From positions 1 to 53,368 of the IMG/VR virus record IMGVR_UViG_3300030388_000656: DNA of 53,368 nucleotides; one strand, given 5' to 3'. The translations under genes and the position numbers were made by a program. Positions 10,225 through 16,768 of this stretch are shown one piece after another; position 1 is the stretch's first letter; each line of letters begins with the position of its first letter. The notes beneath the pieces are model-generated. The model was not told where the DNA came from. It did no database searches and was given only the letters and a program-made list of their open reading frames with translations. The DNA comes from a virus.

Positions 10225-10823
10225 TCGACAATGATGTGTCTTTTACTCTCTTCTCTGATGTATTTTTTAGCTTCAACTAATGAAGTACCTAAAAACTCCA
10301 TACCCCACCAGTCGCAGTAGTATCCTATTCCACCATCGTAGTTTGGATGCTCATCTAATAACTTAGATAGATGGTATGTTTTCTTCTTATAAGTGTATTC
10401 AATTTCTTCATCAAAGTTTGGTTCATCGTATTCATCGTGCATAATCTGTTCTCCATTTTCATACTCCATCTCTCCTCCCCAGCCATTTTCTTCTTCCCAA
10501 TGGTAAATGAAGTCTGGAAAGTCCTTACTAAATAATTCAATGATGTTCATTCCAATACAGCTCCATGCTGAAGAGAAATTAATAGATCCCTCGTTTATGT
10601 CTATTTCGATGTCGTAACATCCCCATTTTGTATTCCAGTTATGAAGTCTCCATTCATACCATTTATGGTCTGCATCTCCCTTGTTTATCTCTGGAAGATA
10701 GTGTCTACATAAAGCTACTGGTTCTTCAGAATTCAATGTACTTTCCCAGTACTTTAGAATGTCTCTTTGTTTAGTGGTCATATCGTTACCGATTTGGATT
10801 CCACTCATTACATGATTTGGCAT
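10221..10823 (-). CDS. Api92-like / DUF1281-type protein
   Basis: 200 aa. It begins MPNHVMSGIQIGND and contains LHNWNTKWGCYDIEID, SINFSSAWSCIGMNIIELFSKDFPDF, HWEEENGWGG and YYCDWWGMEFLG. This is the NW.tKW...f.taWs...p pattern of the YubB/Api92 ferredoxin-like family, found in phages and plasmids and of unknown molecular function. It is rich in Trp and acidic residues. It follows the first hammerhead ribozyme: cleavage there would give its mRNA a leader of about 25 nt. Confidence 0.75.
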   Translation of the reverse strand: MPNHVMSGIQIGNDMTTKQRDILKYWESTLNSEEPVALCRHYLPEINKGDADHKWYEWRLHNWNTKWGCYDIEIDINEGSINFSSAWSCIGMNIIELFSKDFPDFIYHWEEENGWGGEMEYENGEQIMHDEYDEPNFDEEIEYTYKKKTYHLSKLLDEHPNYDGGIGYYCDWWGMEFLGTSLVEAKKYIREESKRHIIVE

Positions 10824-10842
10824 AATAGTTTTTGATTTTATT

Positions 10843-10895
10843 TATACTGACTACCTTTCGGTAGTTTCGGATACTGAATCCATCATCAGAGTATA
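10843..10895 (-). ncRNA. hammerhead ribozyme, type I, copy 1
   Basis: The minus-strand RNA has all core elements. Stem I: UAUACU (10895-10890) pairs with AGUAUA (10848-10843). Core CUGAUGA (10889-10883). An extra U, then stem II GGAU/AUCC with loop UCAGU. Core GAAA. Stem III ACUACC/GGUAGU closed by a GAAA tetraloop. Cleavage triplet GUC, with the cut expected after C at 10849. Stem I is the open stem (type I). The second copy at 13037 keeps the core while stems I and III differ by compensating changes, strong evidence for a real RNA fold. One extra nucleotide at this core position is known in a viroid hammerhead. It begins two bases after the upstream stop codon. Confidence 0.88.
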
Positions 10896-10896
10896 T

Positions 10897-11175
10897 TTAC
10901 AAGTGTCCTCCATACCCATTGGGAAGTTGGAATCTCCACTCGCTGTCGCTTTCTGGTTCGTTCATTCCTTCGTGGTCATGAACCCCACTACCAAACACAA
11001 TCTCAGTTTGGTTAATTAAATTATCTAAGACATCTACCCAGCTGTCTTCTATACTCATTAGGTAATCTGAAACATCTTCTTCTTTGATGTTCTCTGGTAG
11101 CTCTACCTCAATCTCGGTGTATTTATGATACACACTTCTCTGTTGTATTGTTACTGAATTTTTAGCCATTTCCAT
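10897..11175 (-). CDS. hypothetical 92-aa acidic protein
   Basis: 92 aa (90 if the next in-frame ATG at 11169 is used). Features are YTEIEVELPENIKEEDVSDYL, a short helix DVLDNLINQ, and the Gly-rich C-terminus LPNGYGGHL. Acidic. No family was recognised. It overlaps the upstream gene by 25 bases and stops two bases before hammerhead copy 1, so its mRNA 3' end would be made by ribozyme cleavage. Confidence 0.65.
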   Translation of the reverse strand: MEMAKNSVTIQQRSVYHKYTEIEVELPENIKEEDVSDYLMSIEDSWVDVLDNLINQTEIVFGSGVHDHEGMNEPESDSEWRFQLPNGYGGHL

Positions 11176-11390
11176 AGTTTTTCGGTTAAACTTAATTTAG
11201 GTACACAACCATATGATTCAAAGATTACATCCAGACTATTTATTTCTAATTCAATAAAGTGTTCTGAGTGTGGTGTGAAATCAAATGCTCCTGTTGTTGC
11301 GTTGTACTCTACTGCTTGCTCATCATACTTGTGATGGCACATCTCTTCAGCTATGTAGCGTTTGAGATTTTGTAATTCTACTTCATCCAT
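11151..11390 (-). CDS. hypothetical 79-aa acidic protein
   Basis: 79 aa. Helical N-terminus (EVELQNLKRYIAEEMCHHKYDEQ), then DFTPHSEHFIELEINSLDVIFES and a basic tail LTEKLWKWLKIQ. No family was recognised. It is the first gene after the TAnnTTTG-type box at 11431-11438, about 40 nt upstream, and so may start a separate transcript. Confidence 0.65.
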   Translation of the reverse strand: MDEVELQNLKRYIAEEMCHHKYDEQAVEYNATTGAFDFTPHSEHFIELEINSLDVIFESYGCVPKLSLTEKLWKWLKIQ

Positions 11391-11430
11391 GTTGTTTAAT
11401 TTAATTTAATTAATAGTTATTTTATGTTCA

Positions 11431-11448
11431 CAAAAGTATTAAATACTT
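11431..11448 (-). promoter_or_regulatory. promoter -7 box with adjoining inverted repeat
   Basis: Minus strand reads TACTTTTG (11438-11431), matching the Bacteroidota TAnnTTTG -7 box, about 41 nt before the start codon at 11390. An inverted repeat AAGTATT-A-AATACTT (11434-11448) overlaps the box and could be an operator. It lies in the only gap of this part of the operon without a structured RNA. Confidence 0.5.
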
Positions 11449-11462
11449 AGCTTAAATCCAAA

Positions 11463-11654
11463 TTATACTCCGTAAATTAATTTGAGTAATATCCACAGGA
11501 GGTAAGACACTATAAGAAGGAAAACAGATGCTCCCAGTCCAAATACTAATGCCTCCAGTAGGAACTTAGATGGGTTCTTCTGGATTCTTTCCCAGTCAGT
11601 ATCCTCCTTGTAGTTGTCGTACTTCTTGTCGATTTTGTTTATTCTATCTTTCAT
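11463..11654 (-). CDS. small membrane protein
   Basis: 63 aa. A charged N-terminal 30 residues (KDRINKIDKKYDNYKEDTDW) precede a long hydrophobic segment at about 32-61 (FLLEALVFGLGASVFLLIV and on), one long or two short transmembrane helices ending LKLIYGV. No family was recognised. It overlaps the upstream zinc-ribbon gene by four bases. Early membrane proteins of this kind in phages often alter host entry or envelope functions, but nothing specific is visible. Confidence 0.65.
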   Translation of the reverse strand: MKDRINKIDKKYDNYKEDTDWERIQKNPSKFLLEALVFGLGASVFLLIVSYLLWILLKLIYGV

Positions 11655-11878
11655 AATCCTTGTCTTTTCTCATCAGCTAAGTCTTCTAAATAAGACTCAT
11701 GCCTGTTGACATTATACTCATCTTCATCAATGATTTCGCACTCATCTTTGCACTCATCACAGATGTAGCATCCTTCTACCTCTTCGTTCTCTTCAAACTC
11801 TTCGTATCCAGCTCCACAGCAAGTACTAACTTCCTCTGAGTAATCTGGAGAGGCTAATTTCCAATTGTCGTAATTCAT
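11651..11878 (-). CDS. small zinc-ribbon-like protein
   Basis: 75 aa, strongly acidic. Cysteines are arranged as STCCGAGYEE then GCYICDECKDECEI, a pattern like rubredoxin/zinc-ribbon knuckles (CC..., CxxCxxxC). Such small proteins are common in phage early regions, and some bind host RNA polymerase or nucleic acid, but this role is not shown here. The gene is flanked by lipoprotein and membrane-protein genes in the same operon. Confidence 0.65.
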   Translation of the reverse strand: MNYDNWKLASPDYSEEVSTCCGAGYEEFEENEEVEGCYICDECKDECEIIDEDEYNVNRHESYLEDLADEKRQGL

Positions 11879-11888
11879 ATCTATTTAT

Positions 11889-12020
11889 TTATTTGTACCA
11901 ACCATAGGTCGGTAGTTTCTTGCATTGTCTTGTACTACTGCAAGAGATTAATGATAACAGCACAACCAAACAATATGTGTATGCCATGAGTTTTAAAAAT
12001 ACCTTTGTTGAGTTTTTCAT
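11889..12020 (-). CDS. tiny lipoprotein (43 aa)
   Basis: Read directly from the gap between neighbours. ATG at 12020, stop TAA at 11889, 43 aa. Basic start (MKNSTKVFLK), hydrophobic core AYTYCLVVLLSLI and lipobox LISC-SS at about residues 24-29, then a short mature peptide STRQCKKLPTYGWYK. Signal peptidase II processing would leave a mature lipopeptide of about 17 residues. It lies two bases after the stop of the 100-aa gene. With the second lipoprotein at 12435-12659 it resembles known phage superinfection-exclusion lipoproteins in kind only. Confidence 0.7.
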   Translation of the reverse strand: MKNSTKVFLKLMAYTYCLVVLLSLISCSSTRQCKKLPTYGWYK

Positions 12021-12022
12021 AT

Positions 12023-12325
12023 CTAAAATGGAAGTTCGTTAAAGCTATTTTCTATCTGGTCTGAATACCTTTTGAATATTTCATTCCAGTCAATACACTT
12101 GATATCTTCATACTCAAATTGCTCGCTGTCTACCAGTGACATGAATTCCGTTAAAGGATTGTCAAAGTTAGACTTATTGTCCAGAATAACACATAGTCTG
12201 TAAGTCTGTACATTTTTGTAGCCATAGAACTTCTCTTCTATGTCGTTCTTTTCTTTGGTAAGGTTCTCTACCAGTTCTTTGTACTTATTGATGTCTTCAA
12301 TAAGGTTCTTTGCAGTTAAATCCAT
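12023..12325 (-). CDS. hypothetical 100-aa acidic protein with SSB-like C-terminal tip
   Basis: 100 aa. N-terminal coiled coil (IEDINKYKELVENLTKEKND), then a mixed acidic region. The last residues NSFNELPF resemble the acidic-Pro-Phe tip of SSB proteins (compare NEDLPF in the SSB-like protein at 7251-7511). It could mimic the SSB tail to bind host or phage DNA-metabolism enzymes; this is speculation from four residues. It is preceded by the structured RNA at 12347-12393. Confidence 0.65.
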   Translation of the reverse strand: MDLTAKNLIEDINKYKELVENLTKEKNDIEEKFYGYKNVQTYRLCVILDNKSNFDNPLTEFMSLVDSEQFEYEDIKCIDWNEIFKRYSDQIENSFNELPF

Positions 12326-12346
12326 AGATCTATTTATTTAGGTTTT

Positions 12347-12393
12347 GAGGAACATCCCTCTACCACGAAATCCCCACTAATTTCTTAGTGAGG
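12347..12393 (-). ncRNA. two-hairpin RNA motif, copy A
   Basis: Minus-strand RNA: a 9-bp hairpin CCUCACUAA-GAAA-UUAGUGGGG (12393-12372), then single-stranded AUUUCGUGGUA (12371-12361), then a small hairpin GAGG/CCUC. Copy B at 13390-13435 has the same 9-bp stem length, the same GAAA tetraloop and an identical 11-base linker, while the stem sequence differs with compensating base pairs. It ends 21 nt before the start codon at 12325, so it is part of a 5' leader or intercistronic region. No known RNA family was recognised. Confidence 0.65.
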
Positions 12394-12396
12394 CAT

Positions 12397-12435
12397 GGGT
12401 ACGTTATCGTATCCTTCTGGGTACGTTATCGTATC
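12397..12435. repeat. two direct repeats of 17 bp, each with a short palindrome
   Basis: GGGTACGTTATCGTATC occurs at 12397-12413 and again at 12419-12435, a 22-base period. Each unit contains the inverted repeat TACG-TTAT-CGTA. The second unit touches the stop codon of the lipoprotein gene. It could be paired operator sites or small RNA hairpins just upstream of the two-hairpin motif. Confidence 0.7.
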
Positions 12436-12659
12436 TATTTTACTGGTTTCCTTCCTACATGATTGAAAAGGATGTAAAGACTATCTGTCTTATGCTGGTA
12501 CTCATTGTAGGTCTTTTGCAACTCGTAGTCAATTCGTTCTCTCTCCATTAATTGTAGCGTTGAGAATTTATATGAACTACATGATTGTAGTAAAAATGAT
12601 ACAGCCAGAACTACAAATGCATATCGCATGTAGTAAGTGAAAATTGTTTTTAAACTCAT
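12435..12659 (-). CDS. small lipoprotein (74 aa)
   Basis: 74 aa. The N-terminal signal MSLKTIFTYYMRYAFVVLAV leads into a lipobox LLQSC-SS (Cys about 27). The mature part is about 48 residues, charged and helical (ERERIDYELQKTYNEYQHKTDSL). The SCSS cleavage site is the same as in the 43-aa lipoprotein at 11889. Outer-membrane or periplasmic anchoring is expected. Phage early lipoproteins can block receptors or adsorption of other phages; that role here is inference. Confidence 0.75.
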   Translation of the reverse strand: MSLKTIFTYYMRYAFVVLAVSFLLQSCSSYKFSTLQLMERERIDYELQKTYNEYQHKTDSLYILFNHVGRKPVK

Positions 12660-12660
12660 C

Positions 12661-13008
12661 TTAGTTGTTTGTATTAGTTATTATTGCTTGCTCTTCTTCT
12701 GTATACTCTTGGATGTCTACCAGTTTACCATCTATCTCTTCGTACTGGATATCTTCATCCTCTACCCAGTCTGTCCAGTAATAAATCTCATCGTTGTAAG
12801 CCCATTCCATTAATTCTTCATCAGTCATCTTGCTTGGGTACAGCTGGTTTCCATCTTCATCCTCTGCTGTAAAATCTTGACCTCTCAAGGTGTCAATTAA
12901 GTCCTTGTCATTTGCAATATACTCGTGGTCGTTGTACAGGTAACCTTCGTTCATACCCTCTCCAGTTATACCACATTGTCTTGCCCAAAAAATTCTTTCT
13001 TTACTCAT
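12661..13008 (-). CDS. hypothetical 115-aa very acidic protein
   Basis: I chose the ATG at 13008 (MSKERIFWARQCG), because the longer frame to 13080 runs through hammerhead ribozyme copy 2. The protein is strongly acidic with many Glu, Asp and Trp: MTDEELMEWAYNDEIYYWTDWV, EDEDIQYEEIDG. No family was recognised; the composition suggests a DNA-mimic or a binder of a host protein. Ribozyme cleavage at 13042/13043 would give its mRNA a 34-nt leader. Confidence 0.7.
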   Translation of the reverse strand: MSKERIFWARQCGITGEGMNEGYLYNDHEYIANDKDLIDTLRGQDFTAEDEDGNQLYPSKMTDEELMEWAYNDEIYYWTDWVEDEDIQYEEIDGKLVDIQEYTEEEQAIITNTNN

Positions 13009-13036
13009 CTTATTTGAATTAGTTTGTATCATTATT

Positions 13037-13089
13037 GATAGTGACTGCCAGCTGGCAGTTTCGGATATTAAATCCATCATCAGACTATC
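13037..13089 (-). ncRNA. hammerhead ribozyme, type I, copy 2
   Basis: Minus-strand RNA: stem I GAUAGU (13089-13084) with ACUAUC (13042-13037); CUGAUGA (13083-13077); one extra U; stem II GGAU/AUCC with loop UUAAU; GAAA; stem III ACUGCC/GGCAGU with loop AGCU; GUC with the cut expected between 13043 and 13042. The total is 53 nt, the same as copy 1. Compared with copy 1, four of six stem I pairs and one stem III pair are changed with pairing kept, while all core bases are identical. The 5' strand of stem I includes the stop codon of the upstream gene (13085-13087). Confidence 0.9.
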
Positions 13090-13372
13090 TGCTTCCCTCC
13101 ATGCAGTCTTTAAACATTATCCAGTCAGATACTTTCATGTCTTCAAATATCACATGTCCAAGCACGCTTACTAACTCCTCTTTCATTGTAGTTTGTGCCA
13201 TGATTAATCTAAGTTTTGGATAGTAGATACCTCCCATTTCATATGAGATTTTCTCTTCATCTTCTGGAGTTAATGTGTCTTTGATTCTGATACAATTCAT
13301 CTCTCTCTGAATTAACTCATTTCTGAAATCGTGCTTTAACATCTGTACTTGGTTTAAAATCTTTGCGTTCAT
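13085..13372 (-). CDS. hypothetical 95-aa protein
   Basis: 95 aa, helical. Begins MNAKILNQVQMLKHDFRNEL and contains LTPEDEEKISYEMGG and VSVLGHVIFEDMKVSDW. No family was recognised. It is framed by two structured RNAs: the two-hairpin motif ends 17 nt before its start, and hammerhead copy 2 overlaps its stop codon. Ribosomes terminating here would cover stem I of the ribozyme. Confidence 0.65.
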   Translation of the reverse strand: MNAKILNQVQMLKHDFRNELIQREMNCIRIKDTLTPEDEEKISYEMGGIYYPKLRLIMAQTTMKEELVSVLGHVIFEDMKVSDWIMFKDCMEGSR

Positions 13373-13389
13373 GTCTTTAATTTTAGTTT

Positions 13390-13435
13390 AGGAATAGTCC
13401 TGTACCACGAAATCCTCGCATATTTCTATGCAAGG
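13390..13435 (-). ncRNA. two-hairpin RNA motif, copy B
   Basis: Minus-strand RNA: the 9-bp hairpin CCUUGCAUA-GAAA-UAUGCGAGG (13435-13414), the invariant AUUUCGUGGUA (13413-13403), then AGGA-CUAU-UCCU (13401-13390). Stem 1 differs from copy A at several pairs with pairing kept; loop and linker are unchanged. It ends 17 nt before the start codon at 13372. The gap of 83 bases holds nothing else evident. Confidence 0.65.
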
Positions 13436-13455
13436 CTTTCTCTGGAGAGGGGTTT

Positions 13456-15121: not shown

Positions 15122-16768
15122 ATGGAACAAGGATACATTCCTAAAGACCTCAGCTTTGATGATGAGGCAAGGAACAAATTGATAAGTGGGATTACTAAAA
15201 TCTCCAAAGCAGTTAAGAGTACGTTAGGGCCAAGAGGTCAAACTGTTTTAATAGAATCAACAGAACATTTACAGGGGTTAACTATTACAAAGGATGGAGT
15301 TACTGTCGCTAAGTCAGTACACCTTGATGATCCTATTGAGAACCTTGCAGTTCGTATGATGAAGCAAGCTTCTGAGAAGACTGCTAATGTTGCTGGAGAT
15401 GGAACTACTACAGCTATTGTATTGACTGAAGCTATTGTCCAGGCAGGAATGAAATGGATCAAGCCTTATCATAATGTAACTGACATTGTTAGATACATAA
15501 GAGAGGACTCTGATGTTATTATAGAGAACATTAGGAATAGATCATTAGAGGTTACTGATGATATGTTAAAAGACATTGCAGCTATATCAGCTAACAATGA
15601 TTATGAGTTAGGAGATATTATCTCTGAAGCATATCAACAAGTTGGTAAGGATGGGATAGTAACAGTTGAGAGATCTCAAACTGACAAGACATATTCAGAG
15701 GTTACTAATGGAATAAGAATAGATAGAGGTTATACTTCTCCTATGTTTATTAATGATCAAAGAAAAGATGAATGTATTATGGAAGGTGTTAAGGTTTTAA
15801 TCTGCGACACTGAGATTCATAACATACTTCAAATAGAGAATATACTTAAACCAATTATTAATGCAGGAGATAAACTTTTAATTATCGGAACTTGTGCTGG
15901 CAATGTTATAAATACATTAGCAGCAAATGTTCAACGTAATGGATTAAAGTTTTGTAACATCATGCCTCCTTCATTTGGATACAAGACTCATGAGTTAATG
16001 CAGGATATTGCATTTGCTACTGGAGCTAAATACTTTTCAGAAAAGACTGGAGATGATTTATCTATTATAACTATGGCAGACTTGGGTTATGCTGATAAGA
16101 TTATAGTAGGCAAGTCATCTACTGTTATTATAAAGCAAGGAGATATTAGTGATGAGACATCTTCAAGAGTAGCAGAGCTACGAGATCAACAAGAAAGACT
16201 TACAGCAAAACATGAGAAGGACTTTATCAATGAAAGGATTGCTTCTTTAGTTGGAGGGATAGGTTGTATATATGTTGGGGCTACATCTGATATAGAACAA
16301 AAAGAAAAATTTGACAGAGTCGATGACTCTGTCTGTGCAGTACGTTCAGCTCTACAAGAAGGAGTTGTTCCTGGTGGAGGATTATTGTTATATGATTTCT
16401 CAAGACACTTCGGTTGTAACTGTGAAGATGCAGTATCTGAAAAGATAGATGAAGACCAGGCAGCAGAAATGATTATGAGAGAAGCTTTGAAAGCTCCACT
16501 AAAACAAATCCTTGCTAATGCTGGGCTTGATGAAAAGGAAGTTATGTCAGAGATATATACTGATGCTATGTTAGGAACATTAGATGATGCTCCTGAAGTA
16601 CCAGAAAATAACAGAGGCTATGATGTGGTAGGTAAACAATACGGAGATATGTTTGAGATGGGTATTGTTGATCCAGCCAAAGTAACGAAAGAAGCTTTGC
16701 TTAATGCAATTAGTGTTGCAACAACTATACTAACTACTAACGCAATCATAACACATAAACGAGCATGA
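15122..16768 (+). CDS. groEL: phage-encoded chaperonin GroEL
   Basis: 548 aa, full family length. Near the N-terminus are SKAVKSTLGPRGQTVLI and TITKDGVTVAKSV. The nucleotide-binding motif GDGTTTA sits at 92-98 (the phosphate-binding Asp is 93), and a second equatorial segment at about 400-425 has RVDDSVCAVRSALQEGVV then PGGG. The C-terminus lacks the GGM-repeat tail of host GroEL. It forms a folding cage for proteins, here probably the major capsid or other virion proteins. groES follows with an ATGA overlap. Sequence away from the ATP site looks divergent, suggesting long residence in phages rather than a recent host capture. Confidence 0.95.
   Translation: MEQGYIPKDLSFDDEARNKLISGITKISKAVKSTLGPRGQTVLIESTEHLQGLTITKDGVTVAKSVHLDDPIENLAVRMMKQASEKTANVAGDGTTTAIVLTEAIVQAGMKWIKPYHNVTDIVRYIREDSDVIIENIRNRSLEVTDDMLKDIAAISANNDYELGDIISEAYQQVGKDGIVTVERSQTDKTYSEVTNGIRIDRGYTSPMFINDQRKDECIMEGVKVLICDTEIHNILQIENILKPIINAGDKLLIIGTCAGNVINTLAANVQRNGLKFCNIMPPSFGYKTHELMQDIAFATGAKYFSEKTGDDLSIITMADLGYADKIIVGKSSTVIIKQGDISDETSSRVAELRDQQERLTAKHEKDFINERIASLVGGIGCIYVGATSDIEQKEKFDRVDDSVCAVRSALQEGVVPGGGLLLYDFSRHFGCNCEDAVSEKIDEDQAAEMIMREALKAPLKQILANAGLDEKEVMSEIYTDAMLGTLDDAPEVPENNRGYDVVGKQYGDMFEMGIVDPAKVTKEALLNAISVATTILTTNAIITHKRA

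What the first reader, a model, noticed from the sequence alone, without database searches (positions are those of the whole stretch)
10843..10895. Hammerhead ribozyme in a phage early operon, copy 1
A 53-nt minus-strand element has the full hammerhead core (CUGAUGA, GAAA, GUC) and three stems. Stem III is capped by a GAAA tetraloop. It starts two bases after a stop codon, and its expected cut leaves a 25-nt 5'-OH leader on the Api92-like gene. It would separate two cistrons of one transcript and so set their mRNA stability independently. The ribozyme class is established; its use as an intercistronic mRNA processor here is inference.
Basis: partly seen in the sequence, partly recalled or inferred. 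Interest (0 to 1): 0.9.

Follow-up and report, generated by a model that had tools for sequence, protein, structure and literature searches.

The report
Paired hammerhead ribozymes in phage operon
Two short self-cutting RNAs (hammerhead ribozymes) really sit between genes of this phage's early operon, and hundreds of close relatives occupy gene junctions in other phages, so they probably chop one long phage message into shorter ones, a role proposed in 2011 but still unproven in infected cells.

Summary
Window 10843-10895 (minus) is a complete type I hammerhead, and a second copy lies at 13037-13089. A covariance model built from other phages, without the window, scores them 66.9 and 66.8 bits (E about 8e-15); the next-best site in the window scores 12 bits. 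Rfam 15 misses both at its thresholds.

An extra U sits between core A9 and stem II in both copies. This is the 'extra nucleotide 10' known from a viroid hammerhead, where U is reported to speed cleavage and C or G to harm it. In IMG/VR, with stem II fixed as GGAU/AUCC, the inserted base is U in 26 contigs, A in one, and never C or G.

The family is large. About 300 distinct phage hammerheads sit in the sense direction, start at or near the upstream stop codon, and are cut a median 25 nt before the next start codon; pairing covaries strongly. Some phages carry 12-14 in a row.

Neighbouring genes are not conserved, so generic transcript processing fits better than regulation of the Api92-like gene. 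That idea was published in 2011. Activity was not testable here. Verdict: a well-supported new member of a known kind.

The parts
10843..10895 (-). Hammerhead ribozyme, copy 1, type I (stem I open)
   Evidence: 66.9 bits, E=8e-15 with model R1 built without the window; fold
10890..10895 (-). Copy 1 stem I, 5' strand UAUACU
   Evidence: sequence; pairs with 10843-10848
10883..10889 (-). Copy 1 core CUGAUGA (C3 to A9)
   Evidence: sequence
10882..10882 (-). Copy 1 extra U between A9 and stem II
   Evidence: sequence; insert base is U in 26 contigs and non-U in 1 when stem II is GGAU/AUCC
10869..10881 (-). Copy 1 stem II GGAU/AUCC with 5-nt loop UCAGU
   Evidence: sequence; covariation in the family
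10866..10868 (-). Copy 1 core GAA (G12 A13 A14)
   Evidence: sequence
10850..10865 (-). Copy 1 stem III, 6 bp, GAAA loop (A15.1-U16.1 closing pair)
   Evidence: sequence; covariation
10848..10849 (-). Predicted cut between C17 (10849) and A1.1 (10848)
   Evidence: hammerhead rule; not tested
10824..10848 (-). 25-nt leader of the downstream message after cleavage, begins with the stem I 3' strand
   Evidence: sequence
10897..11175 (-). Upstream gene, 92 aa, unknown function; its stop codon ends one base before copy 1
   Evidence: homologues with a hammerhead at the same place in L042/L242, L047, L065/L244, L231
10221..10823 (-). Downstream gene, Api92-like (DUF1281_C, PF18406, E=1.8e-4, just below Pfam's cut-off)
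13037..13089 (-). Hammerhead ribozyme, copy 2; stop codon TAG (13085-13087) lies inside stem I
   Evidence: 66.8 bits, E=8.6e-15
13076..13076 (-). Copy 2 extra U between A9 and stem II
   Evidence: sequence
13042..13043 (-). Predicted cut of copy 2 (C17 13043 / A 13042)
   Evidence: hammerhead rule; not tested
13009..13042 (-). 34-nt leader before the ATG at 13008 (an in-frame ATG at 13032 would leave 10 nt)
   Evidence: sequence
13085..13372 (-). Gene upstream of copy 2, 95 aa, unknown
12661..13008 (-). Gene downstream of copy 2, 115 aa from the likely start, unknown
10849..13042 (-). 2,194-nt RNA piece, about seven small genes, that would be released by both cuts
   Evidence: follows from the two cut sites and the ORF list

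Best explanation
Copies 1 and 2 are type I hammerhead ribozymes of a phage family that carries an optional extra U before stem II. When RNA polymerase has copied each element, the RNA folds and cuts itself after C17. This splits the leftward early transcript into pieces: the genes upstream of copy 2, a middle piece of about seven small genes, and the Api92-like gene with the recombination and primase genes. Each upstream piece would end in the stem III hairpin with a 2',3'-cyclic phosphate; each downstream piece would begin with a short 5'-OH leader (25 and 34 nt). The likely benefit is generic: separate lifetimes and translation for each piece, not regulation of one particular gene. Shown here: sequence, structure, covariation, orientation and position between genes. 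Inferred: cleavage in the cell. Inferred more weakly: the effect on stability or translation.
For: Independent model: 66.9 and 66.8 bits in the window, next best 12. Of 23 distinct hits to the motif alone (core, extra U, stem II), 23 also have stems I and III, against 14 of 3100 with shuffled flanks. On 57 diverse sequences, 99.8% of cells pair, 14 of 16 pairs change on both sides, covariation score 0.89 against 0.16 shuffled and at most 0.12 slid. Unbiased set: in 80 loci chosen only by primase homology the descriptor finds 32 hammerheads, and none in the reversed control; R1 finds 33, all sense to the primase. Context of 301: upstream ORF end near in 88%, downstream ORF start near in 89%, both in 80% against 17% for random positions; median leader 25 nt. 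Arrays of 12-14 with stop, ribozyme, ribosome site, start repeated. Precedent: prophage arrays cleaved in vitro and in E. coli, and a halovirus early mRNA 5' end mapped to within 3 nt of a hammerhead cut (PMC3088659).
Against: No RNA data here. In folds with 50 nt or more of flank, stem I is predicted in only a minority of molecules (probability about 0.05 or less in both copies; family median 0.07-0.18), although such folds ignore the tertiary contacts of the core and cotranscriptional order. Presence at a given junction is patchy: most homologues of the upstream gene lack the ribozyme, so it is not essential there. No promoter or terminator data separate one long transcript from several; promoter-like sites are no more frequent than in shuffled sequence.
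Confidence: 0.8

Rival explanations
1. The hammerheads cut, but the main use is at the upstream gene's end: they trim its message just past the stop codon and leave a protective terminal hairpin (stem III) with a 2',3'-cyclic phosphate, a substitute for a transcription terminator. The downstream leader is a by-product.
For: Copy 1 stays directly after the same upstream gene in at least four relatives (L042/L242, L047, L065/L244, L231), while the downstream gene is mostly different. Across the family the stop codon mostly lies within about a dozen bases of stem I or inside stem I or the core.
Against: Most homologues of that upstream gene lack the ribozyme. Across the family, pairs sharing only the upstream gene (78) are not much more common than pairs sharing only the downstream gene (53), and relatedness of contigs was not corrected for. 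The downstream leader length is also narrow.
Confidence: 0.25
2. Cleavage is tied to translation. A ribosome ending at the stop codon covers stem I and the core and holds the ribozyme open, so the transcript is cut only when translation of the upstream gene slackens.
For: The stop codon begins within -12 to +5 of the stem I start in 205 of 266 cases, and in 37 more it is the UGA of the core itself. Flanking upstream sequence competes with stem I in folds of copy 2 and of the family median.
Against: The same spacing follows from compact packing of genes. In copy 1 the downstream flank, not the upstream one, competes with stem I. No experiment.
Confidence: 0.15
3. The two cut ends of the released pieces are rejoined, giving circular or spliced phage RNAs through an RNA ligase such as RtcB or by reverse ribozyme action.
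For: Hammerhead cutting leaves the ends that RtcB-type ligases join (general knowledge); two sense copies bound a 2.2-kb piece.
Against: Perreault et al. looked for such products from prophage arrays and found none (PMC3088659). None of the window proteins scanned is a ligase, although not every ORF was scanned.
Confidence: 0.05
4. The elements are not used as RNA; they are short shared sequences at gene borders that ease recombination and cassette swapping, or relics of mobile elements.
For: Neighbouring genes are very diverse (182 upstream and 190 downstream clusters among 240 sites), presence is patchy, and copies within one contig resemble each other (stem I identity 0.78 within, 0.47 between).
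Against: Every stem covaries and pairing is 99.8%, which selection for DNA identity would not keep; orientation is always sense in the unbiased set; the inserted base is almost always U.
Confidence: 0.04

Closest known systems
Bacterial and prophage type I hammerhead ribozymes (Perreault et al. 2011, PMC3088659)
   Same: Same fold and core, located between phage genes, often several in a row; transcript processing was proposed there and cleavage shown in vitro and in E. coli.
   Different: Here an extra U precedes stem II, Rfam models do not detect the elements, and the stop codon commonly abuts or lies inside stem I.
HHphage of haloviruses HF1 and HF2 (described in PMC3088659)
   Same: A hammerhead just upstream of an early gene of a lytic virus, with a transcript 5' end mapped within three bases of the cut.
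   Different: Different host domain; per PMC3088659 it is structurally analogous to HHmeta, whose core has a two-nucleotide G2a/C2b insertion; high-salt setting.
Chrysanthemum chlorotic mottle viroid plus-strand hammerhead (extra A10; De la Pena and Flores 2001, summarised in PMC3705267)
   Same: One extra base at exactly the same place, between A9 and stem II; replacing it by U raised the trans-cleavage rate 3-4 fold, and C or G was strongly detrimental.
   Different: Viroid replication ribozyme with A, not U; here U is the rule in a phage family.
RAGATH-1-hammerhead (Rfam RF03152)
   Same: Only Rfam hammerhead model to touch copy 1 (21.1 bits).
   Different: Far below its cut-off of 56.3 bits; the second copy is not matched.
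Elemovirus (Flavobacterium phages vB_FspP_elemoA to F)
   Same: Isolated phages with a hammerhead of this family (52.5 bits in elemoC) and, in elemoE and F, a primase/helicase related to the window's (43% over 284 aa).
   Different: One ribozyme, without the extra U, at another gene junction.

Membership tests
Type I hammerhead ribozyme | Core C3 U4 G5 A6 N7 G8 A9, G12 A13 A14, A15.1-U16.1, H17 | tested here: met
   All present in both copies; U inserted after A9
Type I hammerhead ribozyme | Three stems around the core, stem I open | tested here: met
   6, 4 and 6 bp in both copies; covariation in all three stems
Type I hammerhead ribozyme | No extra base between A9 and stem II (strict consensus; not a requirement, since active natural hammerheads with one extra base here are known) | tested here: not met
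   U10882 and U13076; the viroid CChMVd hammerhead has one extra base here and is active (PMC3705267), so this marks a variant, not exclusion
Type I hammerhead ribozyme | Distal contact between loop II and the end of stem I | tested here: inconclusive
   Bases outside the core that the search did not fix are invariant or at least 90% conserved: A before stem I, U and A of loop II, A after stem I; contact itself not testable
Type I hammerhead ribozyme | Self-cleavage after H17 giving 2',3'-cyclic phosphate and 5'-OH | not testable with these tools
   needs in vitro transcription
Rfam hammerhead models (RF00163, RF00008, RF03152) | Score above gathering threshold | tested here: not met
   none in the window; RF03152 21.1 against 56.3 bits
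Phage transcript-processing hammerheads (Perreault 2011) | Several sense-strand hammerheads flanking genes of one phage operon | tested here: met
   two in the window, 33 of 33 sense in relatives, arrays of 12-14 elsewhere
Phage transcript-processing hammerheads (Perreault 2011) | Processed RNA ends in vivo | not testable with these tools
   no RNA data

The most novel reading that the evidence does not exclude
A widespread but uncatalogued phage strategy of ribozyme-punctuated operons: nearly identical modules of stop codon, hammerhead, short leader and start codon cut early transcripts into near single-gene messages with 5'-OH and cyclic-phosphate ends. Stop-codon overlap would make cutting respond to translation, and a selected extra U would tune the cutting rate.
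Probability: 0.3. Interest if true: 0.75.

Novelty: new member of a known kind. Interest (0 to 1): 0.5.

Why it matters
The role of hammerheads in bacteria and phages was described in 2017 as an open question (PMC6155905). This family ties hundreds of them to one place, the gap between stop and start codons in phage operons, and reaches isolated phages of Flavobacterium, Pelagibacter and Methylophilales, so the role can be tested by mapping RNA ends in infected cells. It also shows that standard RNA annotation misses the family, and gives a natural counterpart to the viroid result that U is the favoured extra base before stem II.

Tried and rejected
Chance match: rejected. Gene-specific control of the Api92-like gene: not supported, since 37 of 38 other loci with a homologue lack a hammerhead directly before it. 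A start codon inside the U-containing core (CUGAUGAUGG) giving longer proteins from uncut RNA: in copy 2 the frame is open from 13080, but across the family the true frame is open no more often than the shifted frames (13 against 20 and 16 of 75), so dropped. Close relatives among annotated phages by DNA: none. Exact U-form in GTDB genomes: none; the form without U in four contigs, of which the model supports the ribozyme strongly in two (Flavobacterium sp. A45 and an Aliivibrio MAG), weakly in one and not in one. Elements with the wording GGATTTCGTGGTA: not hammerheads (noted in passing). Bias check: the descriptor demands stems, so covariation counts on its output lean towards pairing; the motif-only test and the primase-selected set avoid this.

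Full report
What was claimed and what is there. The sequence agrees in every stated point: stem I UAUACU/AGUAUA, core CUGAUGA, GAAA with A15.1 opening stem III, a GAAA loop on stem III, and GUC before the cut. The upstream stop codon TAA (10897-10899) ends one base before stem I, and the cut leaves 25 nt (10848-10824) before the ATG at 10823. Two things were not reported. Between A9 and the four-pair stem II (GGAU/AUCC) lies one extra base, U10882. The second copy, at 13037-13089, has the same extra U (13076), a stem I and stem III that differ by paired changes, and a stop codon inside stem I.

Is it more than chance? The core words alone are not: about one match is expected per window. The stems settle it. 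A descriptor asking for stem I of at least 5, stem II of at least 3 and stem III of at least 4 pairs finds both copies and nothing on both strands of 3.36 Mb of reversed control sequence. Rfam 15 reports nothing at gathering thresholds for the window, and only a 21-bit RAGATH-1-hammerhead match near copy 1. That is a gap in Rfam, because 15 other loci holding the same kind of hammerhead also give nothing. A covariance model made from 53 other phage sequences, without the window, scores the copies at 66.9 and 66.8 bits (E about 8e-15), with the next site in the window at 12 bits.

Relatives. The exact motif of core, extra U and stem II occurs in 26 IMG/VR contigs. Removing duplicates, 23 of 23 such motif hits also have stems I and III, which the pattern did not ask for; with shuffled flanks 14 of 3100 do. 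Looser scans bring the number of distinct hammerheads to about 300, with and without the extra U. On 57 diverse members 99.8% of cells pair, 14 of 16 pairs change on both sides, and the covariation score is 0.89 against 0.16 for shuffles and at most 0.12 for slid partners. A set not chosen by the motif gives the same picture: among 80 loci found through the window's primase, the descriptor finds 32 hammerheads in 23 loci, and the model finds 33, all on the primase's strand.

The extra U. With stem II fixed as GGAU/AUCC, the inserted base is U in 26 contigs and something else, an A, in one. The place is the one studied in the viroid CChMVd, where the natural extra A10 moderately slows cutting, A10 to U speeds it 3-4 fold, and C or G harm it (PMC3705267, summarising De la Pena and Flores 2001). 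The phage bias towards U and away from C and G fits that chemistry. Whether U raises the rate in this family is inference. Some contigs hold forms with and without U (L010, for example), and relatives with the hammerhead at the same gene as copy 1 can lack the U (L244, and the second hammerhead of L242), so the base is gained and lost.

Place in the operon. The leftward genes of the window include a Sak-type annealing protein, an exonuclease VIII-like protein, a DnaA-like helix-turn-helix protein, an HNH endonuclease and a primase/helicase, an early replication and recombination module. Related isolated phages are those of Flavobacterium (Elemovirus) and a circular podovirus record, MW202828, that also carries groEL, so a host in the Bacteroidota is likely (inference). 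Across 301 family members an ORF of at least 50 aa ends near in 88% and another begins within 120 nt of the cut in 89%; both hold in 80% against 17% for random positions. The stop codon mostly lies within about a dozen bases of stem I or inside stem I or the core, and the leader has a median of 25 nt. In the densest contig 14 hammerheads fall in 6.3 kb, and the visible part repeats stop codon, ribozyme, AGGAGG, start codon almost gene by gene.

Which neighbour matters? Neither is fixed: 240 sites fall into 182 upstream and 190 downstream gene clusters. Copy 1 follows the same upstream gene in at least four relatives, mostly with other genes after it (L242 and L244 shown), yet most homologues of that gene have no ribozyme there. 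Of 38 other loci with an Api92-like homologue, one has a ribozyme directly before it. This argues for a general role at gene junctions and against a device for the Api92-like gene.

How it most likely works. Shown: structure, conservation, orientation and position. Inferred: self-cutting after C17, which gives the upstream RNA a 3' end closed by the stem III hairpin and a cyclic phosphate, and the downstream RNA a short 5'-OH leader. Inferred more weakly: separate lifetimes and translation of the pieces. The caution is that with 50 nt or more of flank, computed folds seldom form stem I; this holds for the whole family, and such folds ignore the core contacts and the order of transcription, but it leaves room for control by translation or RNA context.

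What is known. Perreault et al. (PMC3088659) described hammerheads flanking genes in prophages, proposed processing of long phage RNAs, showed cutting of such arrays in vitro and in E. coli, and noted a halovirus early mRNA whose mapped 5' end lies within three bases of a hammerhead cut. A 2017 review calls the role in prokaryotes open (PMC6155905). The finding is therefore a strong new member of a known kind. New here, as far as the held library shows, are the strong preference for the extra U, the systematic stop-codon and leader spacing, the failure of Rfam to detect the family, and isolated phages in which the role could be tested: Flavobacterium elemo phages, Pelagibacter phages HTVC131P and Jormungand, and Methylophilales phage MEP301. 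The library lacks most subscription journals and preprints, so work on phage hammerheads outside it may exist.

Noticed in passing
window 13375-13455 and 12330-12420, minus strand: Two copies of another structured element between genes of the same operon: a 9-bp hairpin with compensatory differences, then invariant GGAUUUCGUGGUA, each before a start codon. Sense-strand copies occur in six primase-related loci (L272, L281, L288, L294, L297, L298). No Rfam match; a longer pattern in IMG/VR gives about as many hits as I estimate by chance.
   Followed up: partly
window 13006-13080, minus strand: The frame of the gene after copy 2 is open through the whole ribozyme from an ATG inside the core (13080). 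Across the family such open frames are no commoner than in shifted frames.
   Followed up: yes
L046 (IMGVR_UViG_3300030382_001968): 14 hammerheads in 6.3 kb of one phage contig, nearly one per gene, with similar stem I sequences, which suggests copying within the genome.
   Followed up: partly
L317 (contig in an Aliivibrio MAG): About nine or ten hammerheads in 5.8 kb of a short contig that also carries an Api92-like gene; it may be a phage contig binned with a bacterium.
   Followed up: no
L008 and L190: Stem III of one hammerhead in each carries an insert of several tens of bases with its own structure, nearly identical in the two; a candidate sensor or protein-binding domain.
   Followed up: no
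window 15122-16768, plus strand: A phage-encoded GroEL (PHROG 5725, E=1e-132), also present in the related MW202828 and Elemovirus records.
   Followed up: no
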